This document shows, one piece after another, positions 26,901 to 29,846 of a DNA stretch of 64,000 nucleotides. The stretch comes from Amylostereum areolatum (lineage: Eukaryota; Basidiomycota; Agaricomycetes; Russulales; Stereaceae): NCBI GenBank assembly GCA_012932865.1, contig SAXG01000006.1, forward strand, positions 682,001 through 746,000, read 5' to 3'. The translations under genes and the position numbers were made by a program. Position 1 is the first letter of the stretch. Every line of letters begins with the position of its first letter. The notes under the pieces are model-generated. The model was not told where the DNA came from. It did not search any database and was given only the letters and a program-made list of their open reading frames with translations.

Positions 26901-29846
26901 ATCCGCGAGGGGCTCATATCGGGCGACGAAGAAGTGAGCTACCTCAAACAGGTACACGCCAACCAAAACTATGTTAGGAAGTGGGTGATCTATCTCTTGA
27001 CGCTACTATGACCTCATCTTATTGTAGGTGGTTATCCCCGAGTCCTGTCAATAACAGCGTGTGGGTGGCGCTCGTGGTGCGTAGACAGGTCGCCTCAGGA
27101 CTGCTCCACATTCATATACCGTTTTAGGACGCTGAACTATCCTCGTTGGTCGAAAACCCCGACTCTTACAAGTTGTATGACATCGCTGTTAAGTGAGCAA
27201 TACTTGATTCCGACGGTATGCGGCGGGCTGAAGTGGCTTCAAGGCTTGCTATCAACAATGATTGGCTCATGGAAGAGGGCTGGGCGTTATACATGGTGGG
27301 TTGCACAATCCATCGCCCTTGTAATGCCGGCCTAATATTGGGGTTAGCAAGGGTCGCATTTTGTCCGATGCGGCGTTGAAGGGCTGGGAAGTGAGTTGCA
27401 ACGCCGAGGTATATCTCGCCATGCGCAATGGGGCGCACGGAGCATCGTGTAGGTCATATCGCCATCGACAGGTTACTTACACTAATCTGTGTCGAACGGT
27501 AGAGCAACCCTGTCGTCTGCCCTTACGACCAGCCCTCAAGATACACTCAAGCGACACATCTTCACGTCCGATGTCGGTGTTCAGACAGAAAGCAATGTTA
27601 TAGGATCGCATATTCAGCCTCGGACGGCATATGAAGACGCTCCTCCTCAGGATAATGAGGAAGACGAGGCGAGGAGTCTGCCTGCTTCCGACCTGGCTGC
27701 GGTTTTAAAGTGGAGCAAGGATATCTCAAAAAATATCCACCTCTTTGCTGGTAGATATCAACTCCAAGTTCTTGGCACGAAGCTCTACTCATCTCTCACT
27801 AGCATTGCAACGCTTGACCGAAATCGCCATCGGTGGGTCGTAATGTACTCGCCATAGACATGGGCACTAACAACACCTATATTTCAGAAACTTCCGGGGG
27901 TCAAAGTGCTTGCATCGTCATCACGGGTGGTGGTGGAGAGTATTCAGTTGCGACAAGCATGATCCCTCCTGGCCTGTGCAAAGTTCATGAGTGAGTAGAT
28001 GTCTTGGCACCGTCGTTGTTGCTCACAGTGGCGTAGGAATGCGCCATCTATTCGCACTATCAGCGACCCACTGCAGAAGGCTCTAAACACCAGCTAACAC
28101 GAACATAGGGGTCAAGGCCGATTACGCCCGCATCCGCCAAAGTGGGGTTTTCGAGATAACCCTTTCATACTACTGTCTTACCCTCCTTCTCCAGTACTCA
28201 TGAACCTCGTTGGGAACGCGGTCAAATTCACGGCTAATGGCTCGGTCAAGGTCCTCTGCTCTGTCGATAATGAAACCCTCGCTGCCGTAGAGGGACAGGT
28301 CAACCTGAAGTTTGTGATCCAGTGAGTGCGCTTTGGCTCTAGAATTTCCCTTCCGGGACGCAGTTTGTTCAGGGATACAGGCATCGGACTCTCCTCAACA
28401 GACGTGGATCATCTCTTCATGCCCTTTCAGCAAGCAGACAACTCCTCGACGCGCAAGTTTGGCGGAACGGGTCTCGGTCTGTCGATTTGTCGCCAGCTGG
28501 TGAAGCTCATGGGCGGTGTTATTGGCGTACACTCAGAGCTCGGCAAAGGGTCTGTGTTCTGGTTCACCATCCCAACAAAGCTGTTCGAGTCGGAAGAATC
28601 GACTCAGGTAAACTTTAACCTTTCTTAACTGTAAGAGTTATTCTGATTTTCCTCAGGCTTTAATGAAAATCCAGAACCTGAGGACCCATCTCAAGGAGAC
28701 GCGGTCACCTCGAATCCTAATATGCTCTCCTTCTGACGCCACGCAAACCCATCTGAGTACGATGCTTGATGACCTCAACATCTCTGTTCTCTCCACCATA
28801 CTCGACTTGCAGGACTTCCTCCGTATATCATGCGCATCAGATACGACCCCCCCGCTCCACCTTGTCGTCTTCGACTTTCAATCGGAAATACAAGCAGACG
28901 GCATTGCCAAACTCATACAAGGTCTGGGATATCCTTCCCTGCGAGATACGAAGATTGTGCACCTCTATACACCGGTCACAGATGGATTGGCAGGCCATCC
29001 GATGCTACAGGACGACGTTCCGGGACTAGTACGCATGACGAAGCCTCCCCGCGCACTGCGGTTACTGCAGACGTTGGCTGGGTTGGCGGGTATGCCGCAC
29101 GATGCATACGTCAAGTTCGTATCCAATCAAGCAATGATAGTCGAAGAGCCGCCCCCTCCCCGAATGTTATATGGCAATGTCCTCATAGCAGAAGGTGGGT
29201 GCAATTCGGAATGCGAATATCGAAAGTATAATGGCTGACCACTTGATCGACAGACAATCATGTCGCGCAAAAACTGTTGATGCAGCAGCTGGCGCGTTTG
29301 GATCTCCATGTCATAGCCACATCCAATGGCGAGGAGGCTATCGCAGGTACCTTATAATCTTCGTGATCAAGCTTGCCTCTTCATTTATCTTTGGTTAGAA
29401 TGGGAGGCGCACGAGCCGGGGTTTTTCAGTCTCGCTTTATTTGACCACCGTGCGTTTCATCAAAACTTTCCTTCCTAGTTTGTTATTAACCGATAACCGA
29501 TGTAGATATGCCAATTTGCGACGGGGTGGAAGCTGCGAAGCGCGTGCGAATACTGGAGAGCAGGCGGAATATTCCCGAGAAACTTACTTTGCCTAGTGCG
29601 TCCATCCAGCACACTCGTCGCCCCTTTCATTTGTCTGAATGTCGGGTATTGCAGTCGTTGCCCTCAGCGCTGACTGCCAGGATTCCACCAAGCGGCTCTG
29701 TCTCAGTGCAGGCATGAACGACTTCTTAAGCAAACCTCTGAAAAAACGTATGTTTCTGTATCCTGCCTCCTAGCGCGCATATCTGACATTCTTTAGCCGA
29801 TCTACTAATGCTAACATCCACGTTCGGCACCGGCCAGAACGGATAA
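20969..29846 (+). CDS. Group X hybrid histidine kinase (Mak2/Mak3/Chk1-like), probably disrupted
   Basis: A very large multi-exon gene. In order: an N-terminal Ser/Thr-kinase-like domain (GAVHREVRANAFHLNSHSG, LCYLAPEQTGSVE, LYSLGVLFWTLLVG; HRE replaces HRD and HFGN replaces DFG, as I recall for this group); an AAA-type ATPase (Walker A GAAGAGKSSL after an intron near 22955, Walker B-like LFLDDIHEADDS); helical TPR-like repeats to ~27.3 kb; a linker with DLAAVLKWSKDISKNI; the start of a GAF domain; HATPase_c (MNLVGNAVKFT, DTGIGLSSTDVDHLF, GGTGLGLSI); and a receiver (LALFDHHMPICDGVEA with the acceptor Asp, LSKPLKK with the Lys). The family senses peroxide/stress and feeds the Mpr1-Mcs4/Skn7 phosphorelay. 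Between 27,990 and 28,110 most of GAF and all of HisKA are absent and an in-frame TAA occurs (28095-28097). ATG 20969 is preferred; 20891 is possible. Confidence 0.87.
22183..22238 (+). other. Non-canonical GC-AG intron in the histidine kinase gene
   Basis: The exon ends QMIEK (..GAGAAG) and the next must begin LLAKSADSRYQSAFGLKADL. The only border that keeps the frame starts with GC (22183) and ends with TTCCTTAG (22238), 56 nt long. GC-AG introns exist but are rare; this could also be a mutated GT donor. Confidence 0.5.
27991..28110 (+). other. Deletion junction: GAF/HisKA region missing
   Basis: The upstream exons read LTEIAIETSGGQSACIVIT ... SMIPPGLCKVHE. An intron (GTGAGTAG..GGCGTAG) leads to NAPSIRTISDPLQKALNTS and then TAA at 28095-28097. 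Only 10 nt later the sequence reads VKADYARIRQ, which in the family sits just before the HATPase N-box. About 250-300 residues expected between these points, including the H-box histidine, are not there, and no GT donor after QKAL would let the frame skip the stop. Confidence 0.7.

What the first reader, a model, noticed from the sequence alone, without database searches (positions are those of the whole stretch)
27880..28340. Hybrid histidine kinase that has lost its phospho-acceptor (HisKA) domain
In the sequence, a GAF domain starts normally (TSGGQSACIVIT ... SDPLQKAL), meets an in-frame TAA at 28095-28097, and 10 nt later the reading resumes at VKADYARIRQ / MNLVGNAVKFT, which in group X kinases lies just upstream of and within the ATPase domain. 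Most of GAF and the entire H-box region (normally ~250-300 residues) are absent and no H-E-x-R-T-P motif was found elsewhere in the gene. The kinase-like, AAA ATPase, TPR, HATPase and receiver parts all look well kept. Either this is a recent internal deletion pseudogene, an assembly collapse, or a gene now making two products: an N-terminal sensor without histidine kinase, and an ATPase-receiver fragment that could act in trans or as a phosphate sink.
Basis: partly seen in the sequence, partly recalled or inferred. Interest (0 to 1): 0.75.

Follow-up and report, generated by a model that had tools for sequence, protein, structure and literature searches.

The report
Fungal histidine kinase gene missing middle
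A normally well-kept fungal stress-sensing kinase gene has lost, in this genome assembly, the stretch of about 230 residues that carries its phosphate-accepting histidine; this is most likely a broken gene copy or an assembly fault rather than a new kind of signalling protein.

Summary
The gene (20891-29846, +) is a fungal group X hybrid histidine kinase in what I take to be the Amylostereum areolatum assembly of PMC7227769: contig C1 has exactly the published longest-scaffold length. A near-identical protein, P0001 (named A. chailletii), maps exon by exon onto the window with two residue differences outside the junction, but its residues 1580-1755 are missing between 28083 and 28108. Three more relatives show the same single large gap, no stop in aligned unsplit codons and a frame break only there. 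Relatives carry about 229 residues there: the rest of GAF, the H-box domain and the first part of the ATPase domain. The piece was not found in the held contigs, while a control piece of equal length was. The frame stops at 28095-28097, before eight exon junctions. I read the locus as a dead copy: a recent deletion (about 0.5) or a loss made during assembly (about 0.4). A working two-part kinase is unlikely, because the ATPase fragment also lacks about 40 residues of its fold. Raw reads would decide. Interest is low.

The parts
20891..29846 (+). Whole gene: group X hybrid histidine kinase with an internal gap. Start codon inferred from the open frame; P0001 starts inside it at 20969.
   Evidence: Spliced alignment of P0001, three relatives, start position, stop after the last exon
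21538..22134 (+). Protein-kinase-like domain (approximate span, with introns)
   Evidence: Pfam on P0001 residues 156-303 placed by the map; weak Pkinase match of the window exon itself
22909..23695 (+). AAA ATPase domain (AAA_16; approximate span, with introns)
   Evidence: Pfam on P0001 residues 480-650 placed by the map; weak match of a window exon
27747..28082 (+). First part of the GAF domain, about 61 of 138 residues (with introns)
   Evidence: Pfam on P0001, map
28083..28108 (+). Junction patch: CTAAACACCA..., in-frame TAA at 28095-28097, then the likely end of an intron with acceptor AG 28107-28108
   Evidence: Sequence, map, reading frame, unique in the held contigs
28109..28607 (+). 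ATPase (HATPase_c) exons, lacking about the first 40 residues of the catalytic fold (with introns)
   Evidence: Pfam, solved structures, motifs
29179..29807 (+). Receiver domain, conserved Asp and Lys motifs present (with introns)
   Evidence: Pfam on P0001 residues 2061-2178, map, motifs

Best explanation
This is a broken copy of an ordinary fungal group X hybrid histidine kinase gene (the Chk1/Mak2 type). A recent internal deletion removed the exons for the second half of GAF, the H-box dimerisation domain and the start of the catalytic domain, running from inside a GAF exon into the intron just before the VKADYARIRQ exon. The transcript would meet the TAA at 28095-28097, far upstream of eight exon junctions, so it should be degraded or give an N-terminal protein with no histidine-kinase part. 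Shown: the absence in the assembly, the stop, the intact remaining exons, and no other copy in the held contigs. Inferred: that the deletion exists in the organism, that it is recent, and its effect. If the sequenced fungus was a dikaryon, an intact allele may sit in its other nucleus, because the authors removed heterozygous contigs.
For: P0001 maps with two residue differences outside the junction but lacks a counterpart for 1580-1755. P0002, P0003 and P0007 give the same gap, no stop in aligned unsplit codons, and insertions that break the frame only at the junction (3 of 3). The left side is coding and the right side ends like an intron in the right phase for the next exon. The missing piece was not found in the held contigs, while a control piece of the same length gave six exon matches. 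No N in the window and no repeat found at the junction. The upstream helicase gene shows no gap of 8 or more residues.
Against: No reads were available, so the deletion is seen in one assembly only. The exons show no other decay, which fits an artefact as well as a recent event. The assembly used scaffolding, gap closing and removal of heterozygous contigs, and 5.8% of BUSCO genes were missing. 66 of the 248 published scaffolds are not held here, so the piece could lie there.
Confidence: 0.5

Rival explanations
1. The gap is an artefact of the assembly: the organism has an intact gene, and its middle was lost when contigs were joined, gaps were filled or haplotypes were merged.
For: The paper describes Falcon and Celera assembly, SSPACE scaffolding, PBJelly gap closing and removal of heterozygous contigs. 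The remaining exons are nearly identical to P0001. The junction patch differs from P0001 in a patchy way (LNT seems kept, IIQHA lost), which gap filling could produce.
Against: No N in the window, no repeat found that would cause a collapse, native-looking sequence on both sides, and the neighbouring helicase is intact.
Confidence: 0.4
2. The gene still works in a new form: either an N-terminal sensor plus a separate ATPase-receiver protein, or one protein made by skipping GAF exons, with a receiver served by other kinases.
For: All remaining exons are open; nucleotide-binding and receiver motifs are present; pairing the orphan acceptor with some donors farther upstream would keep the frame; one Hpt and several receiver and HisKA matches exist elsewhere in the genome.
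Against: About 40 residues of the catalytic fold are gone; pairing with the nearest donor is out of frame; no transcript or promoter evidence.
Confidence: 0.05
3. The H-box was lost in an ancestor of the genus, and the window only shows a larger form of the same loss.
For: P0001 lacks exactly 53 residues with the H-box between NALLFR and SFYGLL, and its HisKA match covers only profile positions 22-65 and is below the cut-off.
Against: The P0001 model also skips 48- and 60-base in-frame stretches that are open in the window DNA and conserved in relatives, so it holds false introns, and a third of 159 bases would explain the H-box. Two Mycena models, P0089 and P0115, are damaged at the same exon. 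P0001 keeps 176 surrounding residues that the window lacks.
Confidence: 0.05

Closest known systems
Fungal group X hybrid histidine kinases (Chk1 / Mak2 type; sources call homologues 'dual-domain HisK/Mak2 protein kinase' or 'Chk1 protein kinase')
   Same: Order of kinase-like, AAA, GAF, ATPase and receiver parts; 64-69% identity over the aligned unsplit codons to three relatives
   Different: Second half of GAF, the H-box domain and the start of the catalytic domain are absent; frame broken by a stop
P0001, histidine kinase named Amylostereum chailletii
   Same: Two residue differences outside the junction in 1,985 unsplit codons
   Different: Keeps 176 residues that are absent here; its own lack of the H-box is probably a false intron of the gene model

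Membership tests
Fungal group X hybrid histidine kinase | N-terminal serine/threonine-kinase-related domain | tested here: met
   P0001, identical in these exons: PF07714 25.8 bits over cut-off 23.1, PF00069 26.1 under cut-off 31.7; window exon alone below cut-off
Fungal group X hybrid histidine kinase | AAA_16 ATPase region | tested here: met
   P0001 56.2 bits, cut-off 32.6; exons present in the window
Fungal group X hybrid histidine kinase | Complete GAF domain | tested here: not met
   About 61 of 138 residues remain; the remaining peptide has no Pfam match at E up to 1 (protein 3)
Fungal group X hybrid histidine kinase | HisKA domain with the phospho-accepting H-box | tested here: not met
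   No HisKA match on this contig, no H-box piece found in the gene; motif present in 117 of 120 homologues
Fungal group X hybrid histidine kinase | Catalytic ATPase domain | tested here: inconclusive
   HATPase_c 90.4 bits and motifs present, but about 40 residues at the start of the solved fold are absent
Fungal group X hybrid histidine kinase | C-terminal receiver domain | tested here: met
   P0001 61.1 bits; exons and motifs present in the window
Fungal group X hybrid histidine kinase | Autophosphorylation and phosphorelay activity | not testable with these tools
   Needs the purified protein or a genetic test

The most novel reading that the evidence does not exclude
A wasp-borne wood-decay fungus keeps and expresses a group X kinase without its own histidine: through exon skipping it makes one in-frame protein whose receiver is charged by other kinases, so that the former kinase acts as a phosphate sink or scaffold.
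Probability: 0.04. Interest if true: 0.55.

Novelty: new member of a known kind. Interest (0 to 1): 0.2.

Why it matters
If the deletion is real, a fungal sensor that relatives keep (group X kinases are linked to oxidative-stress response, PMC4965123, passages) is broken in a strain carried by a pine-killing woodwasp, a small case for relaxed need of that sensor in an insect symbiont. If it is an artefact, it warns that this assembly can lose part of a gene without any mark. Either way, gene models of this family can lose the H-box exon (three of 120 here), so counts of such kinases from protein models alone need care.

Tried and rejected
Second copy: DNA of 27480-29800 matches only itself and one 48-base stretch at 85% on C147; I read 451 bases around that stretch, saw nothing of this gene and went no further. 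Moved piece: 176 residues of P0001 gave nothing; 78 residues of P0002 gave one weak match (E 0.042, 38%) on C1 beside another kinase's HisKA match. Widespread damage: not seen in this gene or in the upstream helicase. A first greedy splice map stopped before a 23-base exon (sequence) and was replaced by a dynamic-programming map, which allows GT-AG introns only. A protein search for shorter relatives named no Amylostereum entry among the 120 listed of 5,586 (many rows have no name). A UTP5-like neighbour protein, meant to test the species, named none among 81 (again many rows without name). Limits: the receiver search missed the window's own receiver, which is cut by introns, so exon-wise family counts are lower bounds. 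Literature: searches for A. chailletii with genome, group X kinases in fungi, fungal kinases lacking HisKA with pseudogene, and Amylostereum with genome assembly and Sirex listed no paper that, by title and opening of abstract, describes this loss; the A. areolatum genome paper has no 'histidine kinase' in its main text.

Full report
What the window is. The genome held for the window has 57,130,172 bases in 182 contigs. Its contig C1 is 3,099,494 bases long, exactly the maximum scaffold length in Table 1 of the Amylostereum areolatum genome paper PMC7227769 (passages read). I therefore take the window to be from that assembly (inference from one exact length). The table gives 248 scaffolds and 57,567,124 bases (the text gives 53,481,184), so 66 scaffolds and about 0.44 Mb are not held here.

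The gene. A protein search with the joined open pieces scored 7,988 candidates and listed the best 120 of 2,655 hits. The best is P0001, named histidine kinase [Amylostereum chailletii]; those with names are fungi, six have no name. By eye, P0001 is the only one of the 120 without precomputed PF00512 (HisKA). A spliced alignment of P0001 to 20900-29900 gave 53 introns (GT-AG by design of the script) and 1,978 identical residues among 1,985 unsplit codons. Five of the seven mismatches lie in the junction patch, leaving two, at residues 1293 and 1374. Codons split by introns were not compared. Two of the 53 introns are in-frame stretches of 48 and 60 bases that are open in the window and matched by conserved sequence in relatives, so they are probably false introns of the P0001 model.

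The gap. In that map P0001 residues 1581-1674 and 1682-1755 have no counterpart; the few residues between them were placed on the junction patch and are noise. Counted from the last shared residue, 176 residues are missing (1580-1755). With P0002, P0003 and P0007 the same place gives the only large gap (222, 182 plus 42, and 216 residues), no stop in aligned unsplit codons, frame-breaking insertions only at the junction, and identities of 1382/2006, 1385/2009 and 1309/2026. The other gaps of 8 or more residues (two in each of the three, 8-12 residues) lie at the ends or in variable stretches. Of eight relatives tried, six could be measured: 229 residues in five, 232 in one.

The junction. The GAF exon reads SDPLQKA, then CTAAACACCAGC, then TAA at 28095-28097. 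P0001 reads KAIIQHALNTKER there, so LNT may be a retained island with a second small loss before it; this is inference, since no intact DNA was available. The right side looks like the end of an intron: AG at 28107-28108 followed by GGGTCAAGGCC, which gives the last two bases of a Trp codon and then Val-Lys-Ala, as in P0001. The 29-base string at 28080-28108 occurs once in the held contigs even with three mismatches allowed; the reversed control gave none. The window holds no N.

Is the piece elsewhere? The 176-residue piece of P0001 gave no match at E up to 1. A 78-residue H-box piece of P0002 gave one weak match (E 0.042, 38% identity) on C1, next to another kinase's HisKA match. A control piece of 176 residues from the intron-rich middle of the gene gave six exon matches at the right place. 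HisKA matches in the genome at E up to 0.1 are three, on C56, C1 and C103. One Hpt match and eight receiver matches at E up to 0.01 show that phosphorelay parts exist; the window's own receiver was missed by that search because introns cut it, so these counts are lower bounds.

What the remaining product could do. With ordinary splicing the frame, counted from 20969, ends after 1,619 residues, with eight exon junctions downstream. Such transcripts are often degraded (general knowledge). Joining the orphan acceptor to the nearest donor is out of frame; two donors farther upstream would keep the frame and give about 2,000 residues without an H-box, but nothing here shows that this happens. The fragment after the gap has the four nucleotide-binding motifs and four receiver motifs that I looked for. 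However, two short solved chains that hold little more than the catalytic domain match from query positions 103 (4pl9) and 106 (3a0t), while the part kept here begins at position 146 of that query. About 40 residues of the fold are therefore missing, which speaks against a fragment that works alone.

Was the H-box already gone? P0001 lacks 53 residues with the H-box, and 229 minus 176 is 53. Because the same model skips two other conserved in-frame stretches that the window DNA shows to be open, I read this as a false intron, not a loss. The H-box motif is present in 117 of 120 homologues; the three without it are P0001, P0089 and P0115, and the latter two models are garbled or cut at that exon. 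A. chailletii DNA could not be checked, so shared loss stays possible.

Real or artefact. For a real deletion: native-looking sequence on both sides, no repeat, no N, and an intact neighbour gene (392 of 425 unsplit codons identical to the helicase part of P0042; no gap of 8 or more residues; two unmodelled insertions of 58 and 27 bases, which I did not resolve). For an artefact: scaffolding, gap closing and removal of heterozygous contigs, with 5.8% of BUSCO genes missing, and no other decay in the exons. The evidence does not decide; I give 0.5 to a real deletion and 0.4 to an artefact.

Papers seen: PMC7227769 (passages), PMC4965123 (passages), PMC8510515 (passages). All others only in search listings. 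The names Chk1 and Mak2 come from source labels; the names UAP56/SUB2 and UTP5 and the degradation rule are partly recalled.

Noticed in passing
20969-29843 against P0001: The window, which I take to be A. areolatum, and P0001, labelled A. chailletii, differ by only two residues outside the junction, so one label may be wrong or the two species are very close at this gene.
   Followed up: partly
22183-22238: Likely GC-AG intron (donor GCATGC): the P0001 model adds five residues (ACTFI) here that the five relatives aligned with it do not have.
   Followed up: no
18330-20370: A DEAD-box helicase (UAP56/SUB2-like, name recalled) lies directly upstream on the same strand. Four homologue entries (P0042, P0052, P0092, P0096) carry helicase domains in the same protein as the kinase, which suggests conserved adjacency and fused gene models.
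   Followed up: partly
21029-29796: The kinase gene is cut by about 51 short introns (mostly 41-61 bases) and has exons as short as 23 bases (21707-21729).
   Followed up: no
21707-21850: The kinase-like domain reads HREIRAN and HFG where active kinases have HRD and DFG (by eye, motifs recalled), so it is probably a pseudokinase.
   Followed up: no
30513-31626 (-): Open frames that look like a cyclin-dependent-kinase gene on the opposite strand, downstream of the kinase gene (by eye).
   Followed up: no
P0089 and P0115 (Mycena): Deposited protein models garble or cut the H-box exon, so surveys based on protein models may undercount complete kinases.
   Followed up: partly
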